Of a stretch of DNA of 64,000 nucleotides, positions 6,231 to 40,301 are shown in pieces. Source of the DNA: Nitrososphaerota archaeon (GTDB taxonomy: Archaea > Thermoproteota > Nitrososphaeria > Nitrososphaerales > UBA57); the NCBI GenBank assembly GCA_024860875.1, contig JACPSZ010000001.1, positions 83,004 to 147,003 of the forward strand, written 5' to 3'. Position 1 is the stretch's first letter, and every line of letters starts with the position of its first letter. Position numbers and translations under genes: made by a program. The notes beneath the pieces are model-generated. The model saw only the letters and a list, made by a program, of their open reading frames with translations. It was not told the DNA's origin and ran no database searches.

Positions 6231-6342
6231 GATTAATACACCTGATTCTGTTGCGTCTTACAATGGCGCGCGCTAATAAATGGCTCTATATGGCTCCTTT
6301 CCAGACGGGTGAGCATGTGGAGAATTAGGTAGTTATTGAAAA

Positions 6343-6441
6343 TGCGGGGGGTGGGATTTGAACCCACGAACCGCTAACGGACGGGGTTTCTTACAAGAAG
6401 ACCTAAGCCCCGCGCCTTTGACCAGGCTTGGCAACCCCCGC
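6343..6441 (-). tRNA. tRNA-Leu(UAG) with a 14-nt anticodon-loop intron
   Basis: Class II tRNA. The acceptor arms GCGGGGG/CCCCCGC pair perfectly, discriminator A is at 6343, D stem is GCC/GGC, anticodon stem CGGGG/CCCCG, a long variable arm with CCG/CGG follows, and the T arm is GTGGG-TTCAAAT-CCCAC. Anticodon TAG is at 6405-6403. Between nucleotides 37 and 38 lies a 14-nt intron. CCA is not encoded. Mature length is 85 nt. Confidence 0.93.
6388..6401 (-). other. Intron of tRNA-Leu (position 37/38), bulge-helix-loop type
   Basis: Exon CTTA (32-35) pairs with intron TAAG; the 3-nt bulges GG|T and AA|A place both cuts exactly at the expected 37/38 position. A 7-nt loop closes the structure and there is no inner helix, so this is a minimal substrate for the splicing endonuclease. 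Confidence 0.85.
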
Positions 6442-6481
6442 AGAACTTGATTCGTGTAATAACGAGGAGATTTAAGTCTAA

Positions 6482-10410: not shown

Positions 10411-10526
10411 TGCGGTCGACGGGATTTGAACCCGTGTCATCAGCTTGGAGGGCTGATGTCCTAGACCAGACTTTCCACATGTCATTGACGCAACTTGATA
10501 TTGCACATGCTCTGGACGACGACCGC
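10411..10526 (-). tRNA. tRNA-Gly(UCC) with an intron in the D loop
   Basis: Acceptor GCGGTCG/CGACCGC pairs fully, discriminator A is at 10411, D stem GTCC/GGAC, anticodon stem TCAGC/GCTGA, and the T arm is ACGGG-TTCAAAT-CCCGT. The anticodon loop CCTCCAA gives anticodon TCC, with an unusual C at position 33. The D loop is interrupted by about 41 nt; without them the loop reads AGACTGGTCTA, a normal D loop with G18G19. Mature length is about 75 nt. Confidence 0.88.
10470..10510 (-). other. D-loop intron of tRNA-Gly (about 39-41 nt)
   Basis: Exon TCCA pairs with intron TGGA, the 5' bulge is GA|G, and an inner helix CATGT/ACATG follows: a bulge-helix-bulge outline. The exact 3' cut is uncertain. 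The strict 3-nt bulge rule gives 39 nt, while a normal D-loop length requires 41 nt. Confidence 0.75.
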
Positions 10527-35822: not shown

Positions 35823-38044
35823 TCATTCTGTATCGATGAACTCGCTTGCCTGAGGAGGTTCTGGCGAGAGGCCCTTCCTCTTCCTGATGTCAGTTATCAG
35901 CGTGGGTAATATTGATGCTGGAACCTGAGACCAAGCCTTGAAGTGAGTGTTCCACAGGGCCTTGCCTGCAGTCGCACCTCTCATGATTTCAGAAAGGTCG
36001 AAGGTTTCTGATGCTGGAACTTCTCCTTCTACAATCGTCACGATTTCCTTTTGCTCAACGTTCAGCATCTTTCCTCTTTTGGACGATATTACGCTTGCAA
36101 TTGCACCTATCTGCTCGGCTGGACATTTGACTTCTATGCCAAGCATCGGCTCGAGGAGTGTTGGTTGTGCAGAAAGCATAGCACCAAGAATGCCCCTCCT
36201 TGAGGCTGGCATCAGCTGCGCGTATGTTCTGTGAGCGGGGTCTTCGTGAGGAACATAATGATGCAGAATTACTTTGACCCCCCTGCAGTATTCGCGGGAC
36301 AGCGGCCCTTCTTCCATAACGTCCTCAAAGCCAGATCTTATGGAATCCATTGACTCCTGGAGGTACTGTACACCTTTTGTGGCGTCTAGCAGGATGTTTC
36401 CTTTGTTGTCGATTGTAACGACGCTCTTGGCTTCGTCAGAATCCCATCCCAAATCTCTTAGCGTCTTTGCAAGCTGCTTCTTATCCGTGTTTTCGTTGAT
36501 CTGACCCGTTCTGATCAATTCGACTATGTTGTCTGGCAATGCTTCTACGCGCATGAATATCTTGTTGTGCCTGTTCGGAGACTTTGACATTATTGGACCA
36601 GCCCTTCCCCTTATGGTCTCCCTGTAGTTGATTAATGGCCGTGAAGTGACAATCTCTAGTCCTGCTTGCTGTATGAGCGTCGTAGCTATTTCTAAATGCA
36701 AAACTCCCATGCCTGAAAGGAGCATTTCTCCAGATTCTTCATCGATTTTTACTACAAGATTAGGGTCTTCGATGCTAAGCTTTCGTAATTCTTCAACGAG
36801 CTTTGGAAGCTCCTTTGGATGCTTCGACTCTATAGCGATTGTGACTACTGGCTCTGAAACGTACTTTATTGCTTCGAAGGAAGCTACGTCTTTGATCGTG
36901 GAGATGGTCTCTCCTGATCTTGCATATTCTAAGCCGAGAAGTGCGGGGATGTTCCCTGCTGACATCGTGCCAATAATTTCCCTAAACGGCCCCATGTACA
37001 TGTTTACAGACTGAATTCTTCCCTCCCTCTTTGCGCCGAGCAAGTAAACTGTATCGCCATCACGTACAGTTCCAGAGTATAATCGTCCTGTGGCGACAAC
37101 GCCTGCCTGAGGGTCAACAACTACATTTGTAACCATCATGACTATGGGCCCTTTTTCGTCGCATGCAAGAAGAGCCTTACCAACATCACTATTCAAATCG
37201 CCTTTCCAGATTTTTGGAATTCTGTAAGGCTGTGCAACATGGGGAGGAGGATGGTGTTTGACGACCATGCCGAGAACCGCTTCGTGTAGCGGAGATTTTT
37301 CCGACAGTTCCTTTACTCCGTCTTCGGTGTAAGCCTTGTATATGTCAGAAAATTTAACGCCTGTCTTCCGTGCCATGTCAAAGTTGAAGCCCCAGCGGTC
37401 TTTTGCAGAACCAAATGAAACTGTACTACTTTGAATGCTTACCTTCCACTTTTCCTTGTACTCTGGCTCTGCATAAGCATCGATAAGGTTGTTAAAATCG
37501 CTGACAATATCTGCCAGCCATGCTTGCATTTTGTCCGCGGTAAGCCTCAGCTCCTTCACGAGACGGTCGATCTTGTTGATGTAGAGAACTGGTCTAACTC
37601 TCTCTTCAAGTGCTTGCCTGGTTACAGTCTCTGTTTGCGTCATTATACCTTCTACAGCATCCGAAACTACTACAGCACCATCAATGGCCCTGAGACTTCT
37701 GGTAACTCTACCTGTAAAATCTATGTGCCCGGGGGTATCGATCATGTTGATGACGTACGGTTTTCCCTCCTGTTCGTAGTATAGAGTAACATTAGCAGCT
37801 TTGATGGTCATCTGGCGCTGCTGTTCAAGTGGCATAAAGTCTAGAGCAAGGGCTTGACCAGCGATTGAGGGGCTTAGCATGCCGCAGGCAGCCAAAAGGC
37901 TGTCGCTCATCGTAGTCTATTCGGCTGAGAGAGGTTTCTCACTCAGTTTCCGTGATCTACGTGAGCTATGACCCCAAAGTTCCTGATCTGGTTCTTATTC
38001 CCTACGACCTTCATTACTTCTGTCGTTGACTTGTACTTTGGCAA
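35823..38044 (-). CDS. fusA: Elongation factor 2 (aEF-2), gene interrupted by a 29-nt candidate intron
   Basis: Ribosomal translocase GTPase. Exon 1 is complement 37948-38044 from TTG, exon 2 complement 35823-37918; joined they give 2193 nt and 730 aa, the normal archaeal size. Exon 1 encodes MPKYKSTTEV through AHVDHG, and exon 2 continues KTTMSDSLLAA. The junction rebuilds the P-loop Gly-Lys-Thr-Thr. Further G-domain motifs are DTPGHIDF and NKIDR. The plain frame from ATG 37910 alone would lack the P-loop and could not bind GTP. Unspliced RNA would stop after 33 residues (…DHGN-TGA). The last codons carry the attachment site of the integrated element. Confidence 0.93.
35825..35837. repeat. 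Right attachment repeat at the EF-2 3' end
   Basis: ATTCTGTATCGAT on the plus strand is Ile-Asp-Thr-Glu plus the first stop base of EF-2 on the minus strand. Bases beyond it towards the element (stop TGA and downstream) come from the element and re-create the gene end. Confidence 0.85.
37919..37947 (-). other. Candidate BHB-type intron in the EF-2 mRNA (29 nt)
   Basis: 5' to 3' on the minus strand: one A, 9-nt arm CTGAGTGAG, loop AAAC, 9-nt arm CTCTCTCAG (one U-U mismatch), then CCGAAT. Exon CGG (37952-37950) pairs with intron CCG; bulge AA|A on the 5' side and AT|A on the 3' side; outer exon helix CGTAG-TC with GA-CTACG, one A bulged. Cuts after the second bulge base give exactly the frame-restoring splice. 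A shift by one base (37918-37946) gives the same product. Confidence 0.85.
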
Positions 38045-38097: not shown

Positions 38098-38155
38098 ACT
38101 TCGCTCAATAGCAGAAAGGTATTAACACGCATAGCTCAAGACCCAGAAGACCTTG

Positions 38156-38731
38156 ATGGGTGACAGCAAGAAAGTCGTCGTCGTGGGAATTCCTGGCGTT
38201 GGCAAGACTACGGTAGTGACAAAACTTGAGGAAATGCTGAAAGCTGCAAAGATAAGGACAGAGCAGGTCGTGTTTGGCACTGTAATGTTTGAGGAAGCGC
38301 AGAAGATGGGCGTAAAGAGCAGAGATGATATGAGGAAACTTGATGTTAAAACTCAGAAAAAATTGCAAATCAATGCTGCTTCTGCAATAGCAAAGAAGAG
38401 CGCCCCAATTGTATTAATCGACACACATCTATTCATCAGCACAAAAGAGGGGTATATGCCTGGCCTCCCAAACGATATTCTGAAGGCACTCTCTCCTACA
38501 AACCTTGTGCTTATCGAAGCAAGCCCTCATGATATTATCTCGCGGCGACAAAACGACCCTACTAGAGCAAGAGATGTTGCAAGGCAAGAAGTTATCGAGA
38601 GAGAATTATTGATTGCGAAGGCCATGCTCTCAGCTTCAGCAGTGGTTGCTGGTGCTGCGATAAAGATGGTTACGAATGCCGATGGCAAGGCTGACGAGTG
38701 TGCAAGGGAATTATTTGAAGCGTTAAAGTAG
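38156..38731 (+). CDS. adkA: Adenylate kinase, archaeal type
   Basis: 191 aa from ATG 38156 (the preceding TTG 38153 is less likely). Walker A GIPGVGKTT lies near residue 12; IDTHLFIST and the lid Arg residues in SRRQNDPTRARD follow. It interconverts ATP, AMP and ADP. Cmk begins 13 bp downstream and cbf5 then overlaps, the classic archaeal adk-cmk-cbf5 cluster. Divergent from EF-2. Confidence 0.92.
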   Translation: MGDSKKVVVVGIPGVGKTTVVTKLEEMLKAAKIRTEQVVFGTVMFEEAQKMGVKSRDDMRKLDVKTQKKLQINAASAIAKKSAPIVLIDTHLFISTKEGYMPGLPNDILKALSPTNLVLIEASPHDIISRRQNDPTRARDVARQEVIERELLIAKAMLSASAVVAGAAIKMVTNADGKADECARELFEALK

Positions 38732-38743
38732 GCAGATGGAAGT

Positions 38744-39310
38744 TTGAAGAAGAAACTCAGTATCATCATATCGGGAATGCCAGCGGTAGGCAAGACGACT
38801 CTAGCCAGAGCCGTATGCGACGTGTTCGGATTGGAATATTATTCTGGAGGGGACGCATTGAAAGACCTTGCAGAGGAGGAGGGCTACAAAGTGGGAGATG
38901 ATGAATGGTGGGATACTGACGATGGGCTGAAGTTTCTTGCGTTAAGGAAGAAGAACCCAAAGTTTGACAGGAAGGTTGATGCCAAATTAATCAAAAAAAT
39001 CAAAGAAGGAGGCGTGGTTGTGACAAGCTATCCACTTGCATGGCTATGCGACGATGTATTGAAGATATGGCTGAAGGCCTCTGCAGAGAATAGAGCTAGA
39101 AGGATGTCCAAGAGAGACAAGATTGGATATGAAGAATCTTTGAAAGTTGTTAAAATGAGAGATAAGGAGAATTCCTCTCTTTACAATAGGCTGTATGGAA
39201 TAAAATTTGGAGAAGACCTTTCAGTATTTGATTTCGTAATTTCTACTGATAGATTACCAAGCGGGAAGGTGAGGGAGATTGTGTTCACGATAGTGAGGCA
39301 GCTTGTCTAG
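38744..39310 (+). CDS. cmk: Cytidylate kinase, archaeal type
   Basis: 188 aa from TTG 38744. Walker A GMPAVGKTTLA at residue 11, followed by YYSGGDALKDLA and a lid with RARRMSKRD. It phosphorylates CMP and dCMP. It sits between adkA and cbf5, overlapping cbf5 by 8 nt. Confidence 0.9.
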   Translation: MKKKLSIIISGMPAVGKTTLARAVCDVFGLEYYSGGDALKDLAEEEGYKVGDDEWWDTDDGLKFLALRKKNPKFDRKVDAKLIKKIKEGGVVVTSYPLAWLCDDVLKIWLKASAENRARRMSKRDKIGYEESLKVVKMRDKENSSLYNRLYGIKFGEDLSVFDFVISTDRLPSGKVREIVFTIVRQLV

Positions 39311-40301
39311 CACTCAACTCATAGAGATCGCGCAGGAGGAAACTGATCCAAAATATGGCTGCGCGCCCGAAAGTCGAAACATAAAACGGATTTTGGATTA
39401 TGGGTTGATACCTCTCGACAAGACTGAAGGGCCAACGAGCCACGAAGTTGTTGCGTGGGTAAGGAGAGTCCTGAAGGTAAAGAAGGCCGGGCACAGCGGT
39501 ACTCTAGATCCTCCCGCAACAGGTTTACTTCCAATAGGTTTAGGGGAAGCCACTAAAGCTCTTTCCGTATTATTGCTAGGGCCAAAGGAGTATGTCGCCG
39601 TTGCTAGATTACATGATCCTGTTGACGATGCTAGCCTGAAGAGGGTTATCAAAGAATTCACGGGTGAGATATTTCAAAGGCCTCCTCAAAGATCCTCTGT
39701 AAAGAGGGTTACAAGGACAAGGACTATCTATGAACTTGAGGTTCTGGAGCAGCAGGGAAGGCTACTCATCTTAAGGGTCAACTGCGAGTCTGGGACATAT
39801 GTTAGGAAACTTGTCTACGACATTGGTGAGGTCTTTGGTTGCGGGGCAACTATGGTAGAGCTAAGGAGGACGAAGGTCAGCAACCTCAGCGAGAAAGAAG
39901 GTTTTGTTAGACTGCACGAACTTGCGGATGCCTGTTATGACTATGAAAAGGGAGATGATAGCAAGCTGAAGAAGATGATACTGCCTATAGAATACGGCAT
40001 GAAGACCATTCCAAGCATCGTAATTAGGGATTCGGCAGTTGAGGCAATATGCAATGGGGCGAAGCTTGCAATACCGGGGATTTTGAAGATTTCAGGCAAT
40101 ATTGCGAAAGGAGATGTAATTGGGATTTACACCCTGAAGGGTGAGATTGTTGCTCTTGCCCAAGCCTCTATGAATTCTGCAGAAATAAAATCGCAGAAGA
40201 AGGGAATAGCCGCAGAACCTAATAGAGTGATAATGAAGCAGGGTACGTACCCAAAGATGTGGAAGAGCAAGCCCAAGGAAGAAGTCTCTGAATTAAAGTA
40301 G
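39303..40301 (+). CDS. cbf5: Cbf5, archaeal H/ACA RNP pseudouridine synthase
   Basis: 332 aa from TTG 39303. TruB-family catalytic loop GHSGTLDPPATG with the catalytic Asp (near residue 66), then SGTYVRKLV and a C-terminal PUA domain (about 235-315). It pseudouridylates rRNA with H/ACA guides and acts on tRNA position 55. In several crenarchaea this gene contains a BHB intron; here it is uninterrupted, in contrast to EF-2 nearby. Confidence 0.94.
   Translation: MSSTQLIEIAQEETDPKYGCAPESRNIKRILDYGLIPLDKTEGPTSHEVVAWVRRVLKVKKAGHSGTLDPPATGLLPIGLGEATKALSVLLLGPKEYVAVARLHDPVDDASLKRVIKEFTGEIFQRPPQRSSVKRVTRTRTIYELEVLEQQGRLLILRVNCESGTYVRKLVYDIGEVFGCGATMVELRRTKVSNLSEKEGFVRLHELADACYDYEKGDDSKLKKMILPIEYGMKTIPSIVIRDSAVEAICNGAKLAIPGILKISGNIAKGDVIGIYTLKGEIVALAQASMNSAEIKSQKKGIAAEPNRVIMKQGTYPKMWKSKPKEEVSELK

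What the first reader, a model, noticed from the sequence alone, without database searches (positions are those of the whole stretch)
37911..37961. A 29-nt BHB mini-intron splits the GTP-binding P-loop of EF-2
Seen: two frames, TTG 38044 to AHVDHG and ATG 37910 onward, are separated by a 29-nt piece with a 9-bp hairpin (one mismatch). Without it the text reads HVDHG-KTTMSDSLL, the exact EF-2 P-loop, and the length is 730 aa. Exon CGG pairs with intron CCG; 3-nt bulges AA|A and AT|A sit where the archaeal splicing endonuclease cuts, and these cuts give the correct frame. Known: BHB introns in archaeal protein genes are rare, the best-known case being cbf5. I know of no described case in the EF-2 P-loop, but cannot search. 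Inference: translation elongation here depends on EndA and RtcB acting on mRNA; unspliced mRNA gives a 33-residue stub.
Basis: partly seen in the sequence, partly recalled or inferred. Interest (0 to 1): 0.96.

Follow-up and report, generated by a model that had tools for sequence, protein, structure and literature searches.

The report
Spliced-out mini-introns in archaeal EF-2 genes
In this archaeon the only gene found for the essential translation factor EF-2 is broken, inside its GTP-binding loop, by a 29-letter insert with a stop codon that is predicted to be cut out of the RNA by the tRNA-splicing enzyme, and relatives in the same phylum carry similar inserts at seven closely spaced places in the same gene.

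Summary
Window 37919-37947 (minus strand) is a 29-nt insert inside the P-loop lysine codon (K33) of the only EF-2 gene found. Cutting each bulge after its second base restores G-K-T-T in frame (730 aa), and the RNA folds as a relaxed bulge-helix-bulge (z -3.63, 0 of 200 shuffles).

Of 137 genomes that I could classify, 53 carry a 16-63-nt insert in the EF-2 5' end, at seven sites within 16 codons. In 48 of 53, exon and intron form a complete 4-bp central helix, and exon changes are matched by intron changes. All 53 inserts hold an in-frame stop (shuffled: about 23 of 52). Four other genomes carry an intein in the same P-loop.

Splicing is inferred: no RNA was examined. Two EndA-family genes are present; RtcB ligase is not in this assembly but is in 77 of 81 genomes searched (this one included among the 81). 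Ten searches of an open-licence library found no EF-2 BHB intron; a 2020 paper knows only cbf5. Mechanistically it is a new member of the BHB pre-mRNA introns, in a new, essential host gene, repeatedly gained or lost.

The parts
37919..37947 (-). 29-nt BHB mini-intron, splits codon K33 after its first base
   Evidence: restores the EF-2 P-loop in frame and fits bulge cuts AA^A and AT^A
37948..38044 (-). exon 1 of EF-2 (TTG start to first base of K33)
   Evidence: matches the N-terminus of uninterrupted EF-2 genes
35823..37918 (-). exon 2 of EF-2 (rest of K33 to stop)
   Evidence: dN 0.020, dS 0.573 over 695 codons against same-genus G001
37943..37945 (-). in-frame TGA inside the intron (unspliced frame ends here, 33 aa)
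   Evidence: an in-frame stop lies in 52 of 52 introns and in the 53rd
37947..37949 (-). 5' bulge AA^A, predicted cut between 37948 and 37947
37918..37920 (-). 3' bulge AT^A, predicted cut between 37919 and 37918
37950..37953 (-). exon strand of the central helix (ACGG), pairs with 37921-37924 (CCGA), 3 of 4 pairs
37921..37924 (-). intron strand of the central helix (CCGA)
   Evidence: CCGT (4 of 4) in family f7 at the same site
37925..37946 (-). inner hairpin of the intron (8 of 9 pairs, AAAC loop)
   Evidence: different stems at the same site in G001, G003, f7 and f11
37911..37917 (-). 3' strand of the outer helix (GA CTACG), pairs with 37954-37955 and 37957-37961
   Evidence: CGTAG/CTACG is CGTGG/CCACG in G004 (L150)
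37954..37961 (-). 5' strand of the outer helix (CGTAG A TC, one bulged A)

Best explanation
The only EF-2 gene found carries a 29-nt insert that splits the P-loop lysine codon and folds into a relaxed bulge-helix-bulge, and this is most likely a pre-mRNA intron that the tRNA-splicing endonuclease (EndA) would cut at both bulges, after which a ligase, probably RtcB, would join the exons. Shown by sequence: the insert, its fold, the frame and P-loop restored by its removal, the in-frame stop, a single copy in the assembly, purifying selection on exon 2, and 52 other genomes with the same architecture at seven sites in all, with matched exon-intron changes. Inferred: cleavage, ligation, and that unspliced mRNA yields only a 33-residue stub. 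The family looks old and still changing: the N22 site occurs both inside and outside the class, while the K33 and D30 introns of family f11 sit in an otherwise intron-free clade and look recent.
For: Structure and frame. Single copy. Relatives: one search set, 70 of 81 genomes classified: 28 intron, 1 intein, 41 uninterrupted. Class extras, 25 classified: 5, 3, 17. Phylum extras, 42 classified: 20 intron, 22 uninterrupted. The extras were picked from capped hit lists, partly for short open frames, so they give no prevalence. Central helix 4 of 4 in 47 of 52 and in the 53rd. At least 3 of 4 central and at least 5 of 6 inner pairs in 41 of 49, against 0.0096 per letter-shuffled intron. N22 site, 24 distinct rows: 93.8% of cells paired against 80.8% shuffled, 39 double-change cells against 12.9, covariation score 0.437 against 0.175, slid controls 0-7 double-change cells. 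Exon T/C follows intron A/G in 3 of 3 independent tree pairs. In-frame stop in 52 of 52, shuffled mean 23.0, maximum 34; other frames 11 and 29. Machinery: two EndA-family genes; 8 tRNAs with introns of 12-34 nt by ARAGORN.
Against: No RNA was examined. RtcB is not found in the 25 contigs. The window's own motif is relaxed (3 of 4 central pairs), and G004 and G006 of the same family have 2 of 4, the weakest of the set. In isolation the minimum-free-energy fold shows the BHB in 32 of 49. In one search two of five measures do not exceed the shuffles (pairs with a double change 5 against 4.1; further pair types 14 against 13.3). Swapping exon and intron 4-mers between genomes still gives 4 of 4 in 154 of 598, because U.G pairs count. 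Three independent pairs cannot reach significance (p 0.25). In G003 41 codons are missing right after the intron, unexplained.
Confidence: 0.95

Rival explanations
1. Assembly or sequencing error, or a decaying pseudogene.
For: The genome is in 25 contigs and 91.6% complete. A near relative (G003) has a 41-codon gap beside its intron.
Against: Inserts in 53 of 137 classified genomes with the same cut geometry. dN/dS about 0.036 in exon 2 between G000 and G001. No other EF-2 copy found.
Confidence: 0.01
2. Ribosomes skip the insert (translational bypass or frameshift) and RNA is not spliced.
For: A hairpin and an early stop resemble bypass sites in outline (recalled, no call).
Against: At K33 the gap splits a codon: resuming at ACT would omit the lysine, so only a cut inside the codon yields AAG (sequence). 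This argument does not hold for the phase-0 site H28|V29. Cuts fall on the EndA position of both bulges, and the exon strand of the central helix covaries with the intron.
Confidence: 0.02
3. Translation starts downstream of the insert (here at ATG 37910) and makes an N-terminally shortened EF-2.
For: ATG 37910 opens a 695-aa frame. At the N22 sites a downstream start could even keep the P-loop.
Against: In the window such a protein would lack the G1 motif (profile from position 20). Exon 1 keeps the EF-2 N-terminal sequence in the intron genomes and its bases covary with the intron.
Confidence: 0.02

Closest known systems
cbf5 pre-mRNA intron of Crenarchaeota (Watanabe 2002, not seen; Yokobori 2009, PMC2738675, abstract and section 8 read)
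   Same: BHB, mostly unconventional, inside a protein gene; short (16-44 bp); disrupts the codon of a catalytic residue; linked to hetero-oligomeric EndA; gain and loss in lineages.
   Different: Other host gene (EF-2), seven sites, mostly uncultured lineages, inteins at the same spot in four relatives, an in-frame stop in every intron. The window's own cbf5 (39303-40301) is uninterrupted by ORF and Pfam.
Archaeal tRNA BHB introns
   Same: Same kind of cut geometry and presumably the same enzymes; introned tRNAs are present in this genome.
   Different: Host is an mRNA; splicing must restore a reading frame.
HVO_1309 5'-UTR BHB processing in Haloferax (PMC7714728, passages)
   Same: EndA acts on an mRNA at a BHB.
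   Different: Lies in the 5' UTR, not inside a coding sequence.
Putative 12-bp insertions in protein genes of an archaeal virus (Peng et al., as cited in PMC2738675 section 8)
   Same: Short putative introns in archaeal protein genes.
   Different: By that account splicing was not shown and the reading frame is kept; the EF-2 inserts all carry a stop.
P-loop inteins in translation GTPases (IF2 inteins, recalled)
   Same: Insert exactly at the P-loop; found here in EF-2 of G014, G083, G095 and G099.
   Different: Protein splicing, not RNA splicing.

Membership tests
Archaeal BHB intron | Two 3-nt bulges around a short central helix (canonical or relaxed), with cuts after bulge base 2 giving the exon frame | tested here: met
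   Window relaxed, 3 of 4 central pairs; 48 of 53 introns 4 of 4; frame restored in 53 of 53 (in G003 onto a gene that lacks 41 codons)
Archaeal BHB intron | Structure kept by compensatory changes | tested here: met
   three of five measures exceed 500 of 500 shuffles, two do not; slid controls far lower.: 3 of 3 pairs, too few for significance
Archaeal BHB intron | Splicing endonuclease encoded; two distinct subunits, as in hetero-oligomeric EndA | tested here: met
   Two EndA-family genes with both domains; that they form one enzyme of relaxed specificity is inferred
Archaeal BHB intron | RNA ligase RtcB | tested here: inconclusive
   Absent from the G000 contigs; present in 77 of 81 genomes, same-genus G001 included
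Archaeal BHB intron | Spliced RNA and excised intron observed | not testable with these tools
cbf5 intron | Located in cbf5 at the described site | tested here: not met
   The intron is in EF-2; cbf5 in the window is uninterrupted
Group I or group II intron | Catalytic RNA core | tested here: not met
   29 nt; at gathering scores Rfam finds only three tRNAs in the window
Intein | Open frame through the insert, with splicing motifs | tested here: not met
   The window insert has an in-frame stop; inteins occur in four relatives

The most novel reading that the evidence does not exclude
EF-2 mRNA splicing is an ancient, phylum-wide checkpoint: the EF-2 message can be translated only after the tRNA-splicing machinery has removed a mini-intron placed at or near the P-loop. 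The intron has been lost and regained at seven neighbouring sites while always keeping an in-frame stop. EF-2 output would thereby be tied to tRNA-splicing capacity, with active intron gain still visible in family f11.
Probability: 0.25. Interest if true: 0.96.

Novelty: new member of a known kind. Interest (0 to 1): 0.89.

Why it matters
A 2020 paper states that only one BHB intron in an archaeal mRNA had been reported, in cbf5 (PMC7714728, passage). Here a second, essential gene carries such inserts in 53 of 137 classified genomes of one phylum. If they are spliced, archaeal mRNA splicing is more common than thought, EF-2 genes are probably mis-annotated as N-terminally short, and intron gain and loss in archaea can be followed on one gene with near relatives that differ in site. 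It also raises a testable link between the tRNA-splicing enzymes and translation elongation.

Tried and rejected
Rejected: assembly error; a second EF-2 copy; a general defect of translation GTPases in this genome (three other genes match the GTPase profile from positions 1, 4 and 5 while EF-2 starts at 17; a fifth, weak match covers 82-156 only and says nothing); bypass; downstream start. A first spliced-alignment script timed out and one with too strict an anchor missed most loci; searches replaced them. L264 and L285 had no anchor and were read (one intron, one uninterrupted); they stand as '?' in the tree, so that tree does not hold the S37 site. G003, G437 and G351 were outside the scoring and were added. 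Dropped before counting: 11 of the 81 genomes (no or partial match, or 5' end not fetched); of the capped hit lists only 25 and 42 genomes beyond the set were classified. For the inteins of G083, G095 and G099 only the 3' side was seen. In one search, 24 distinct of the 29 N22-phase-1 arms then in hand were given.

Full report
What is there. On the minus strand, EF-2 reads from TTG 38044 to GGA-A, then 29 nt (37947-37919), then AG-ACT-ACG-ATG. Unspliced, the frame ends at TGA 37945-37943 after 33 residues. Removing the 29 nt gives HVDHGKTTMSDSLL and a 730-aa protein. Pfam GTP_EFTU covers profile positions 20-177 (127.7 bits) in the 695-aa frame and 2-177 (170.4 bits) in the joined protein. The local RNA folds at -25.3 kcal/mol (shuffles -14.96, sd 2.85, z -3.63, 0 of 200) into an outer helix, CGG/CCG, a 3-nt bulge, and an 8-of-9-pair hairpin. 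The central helix is one pair short of canonical (A.A).

Single gene, under selection. The EF-2 domain EFG_III is found once in the genome (1.67 Mb in 25 contigs, 91.6% complete) and once in each of 16 of 16 intron-bearing genomes tested. Exon 2 differs from same-genus G001 at 177 codons synonymously and 28 non-synonymously of 695 (dN 0.020, dS 0.573). Three other translation GTPases of the genome keep the start of the GTPase profile.

Relatives. Of 80 named EF-2 loci, 4 carry an insert: L002 at the same K33 codon with a different stem, L003 and L004 at N22 after its first base, and L005 at N22 after its second; 76 read straight. In the genome collection I could classify 137 genomes: 70 of the 81, 25 more and 42 more. 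53 carry an insert, 4 an intein, 80 neither. The later picks came from capped lists and partly for short open frames, so these are not prevalences. Sites, in the window's residue numbers: N22 after base 1 (30 genomes), N22 after base 2 (5), H28|V29 (7), D30 after base 1 (1), K33 after base 1 (8, with the window), K33 after base 2 (1), S37 after base 2 (1). Lengths are 16-63 nt.

Statistics. With the cut geometry fixed by protein and bulges, the 4-bp central helix is complete in 47 of 52 and in the 53rd. Among the 49 scored first, at least 3 central and at least 5 of 6 inner pairs occur in 41, against 0.0096 per letter-shuffled intron. Exon/intron 4-mers move together: TTCG/CGAA 21, TCCG/CGGA 7, CAGG/CCTG 5, GCCC/GGGT 5, ACGG/CCGA 2 (the window's pair), ACGG/ACGA 2, ACGG/CCGT 2, GCGC/GCGT 2, TTCG/CGAG 1, ACGT/GCGT 1, ATGG/CCAT 1. 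Swapping 4-mers between N22 genomes with different exon 4-mers lowers the mean from 4.0 to 2.5 pairs, but 154 of 598 swaps still reach 4. On 24 distinct N22 rows 93.8% of cells pair (shuffled 80.8%), with 39 double-change cells (shuffled 12.9; slid by 1-3 columns 0-7); the numbers of pairs with a double change (5 against 4.1) and of further pair types (14 against 13.3) do not exceed the shuffles. Exon base T/C follows the intron base A/G in 3 of 3 independent pairs on the tree, p 0.25. Uninterrupted genes use 27 codon combinations at residues 20-21 in 152 distinct 5' ends, with TTCG in 19 and TCCG in 29, so the exon strand is not fixed by the protein.

Stops. All 52 introns hold a stop in the exon-1 frame (43 within codons 1-3 of the splice site). 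Shuffled introns give a mean of 23.0 and a maximum of 34. Frames +1 and +2 give 11 and 29. Of 19 whose length is divisible by three, 19 have one (shuffled 8.6). One per family and site: 21 of 21. The 53rd has one too. Relatedness makes these non-independent, but the bias is strong: the introns look kept so that unspliced message cannot be read through. Whether that is only protective or regulatory is open.

History. On a 100-row EF-2 tree (quick method, SH-aLRT only, built from the part downstream of T35) presence of any BHB intron needs at least 12 changes and all states together 19, two rows left out. N22 after base 1 needs 7 (5 forced by strong branches) and K33 after base 1 needs 4 (3 forced). 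The N22 site lies both inside and outside the class, so one old origin with losses or repeated gains are both possible. In family f11 the K33 (G074) and D30 (G292) genomes are sisters among intron-free relatives, which reads most simply as recent gain. Four genomes carry inteins between K33 and T34 (G014 seen on both sides; G083, G095 and G099 on the 3' side only). The G014 intein matches Intein_splicing and LAGLIDADG_3. The EF-2 P-loop is thus hit by both RNA-level and protein-level inserts.

Machinery. Two EndA-family genes (185 aa each, both with N and C domains): L184 is closest to PDB chains 3p1z and 3ajv, L185 to 5x89 and 1a79. This fits a hetero-oligomeric enzyme, which PMC2738675 links to relaxed mRNA motifs (section 8); assembly and activity are inferred. 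RtcB is missing from the contigs but present in 77 of 81 genomes of the related set, same-genus G001 included, so absence by incompleteness is likely. ARAGORN with introns allowed gives 8 tRNAs with 12-34-nt introns among the 19 tRNA loci of this genome.

What is known. Ten searches (listings seen) gave no paper on a BHB intron in EF-2. PMC7714728 (passages) says that to date only cbf5 had been reported; PMC12397907 and PMC6125680 were seen in passages. The library holds open-licence papers only, so a report elsewhere cannot be excluded. The mechanism is that of the cbf5 intron; the host gene, the number of sites and the spread are new as far as these searches go.

Limits. G004 and G006 have 2 of 4 central pairs. 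The isolated fold shows the BHB in 32 of 49. G003 lacks 41 codons just after its intron, in frame, unexplained.

Noticed in passing
L182 and L225 (G014); L152, L153, L154 (G099, G083, G095): Inteins inserted at K33|T34 of EF-2, the same P-loop as the BHB introns; the G014 intein has a LAGLIDADG domain.
   Followed up: partly
L002 444-477 / L084 (G003): Right after the K33 intron 41 codons (TTMSD...KAA) are missing, in frame; five short peptide words of the missing part were not found in either locus (half of the contig is held). Misassembly or real deletion, unexplained.
   Followed up: partly
window 10411-10491 (minus): A tRNA that reads as TCC anticodon by eye matches Rfam only from position 9; GCG at 10491-10489 plus GTC at 10471-10469 would complete its acceptor stem, leaving a 17-nt insert (10488-10472), perhaps an acceptor-stem intron.
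   Followed up: partly
window 6342-6442 (minus): tRNA-Leu(TAA) with a 14-nt intron by ARAGORN.
   Followed up: no
whole genome G000: No RtcB match in the 25 contigs although EndA genes and introned tRNAs are present; also none in intron-bearing G003 and G036 and in uninterrupted G071.
   Followed up: partly
L209 (G074) and L210 (G292): Sister genomes in family f11 with introns at different sites (K33, D30) in an otherwise intron-free clade: candidates for recent intron gain.
   Followed up: partly
window 38153-40301: EF-2 lies divergently next to two P-loop kinase-like ORFs (by eye) and cbf5, the one gene known for archaeal mRNA introns; cbf5 is uninterrupted here.
   Followed up: yes
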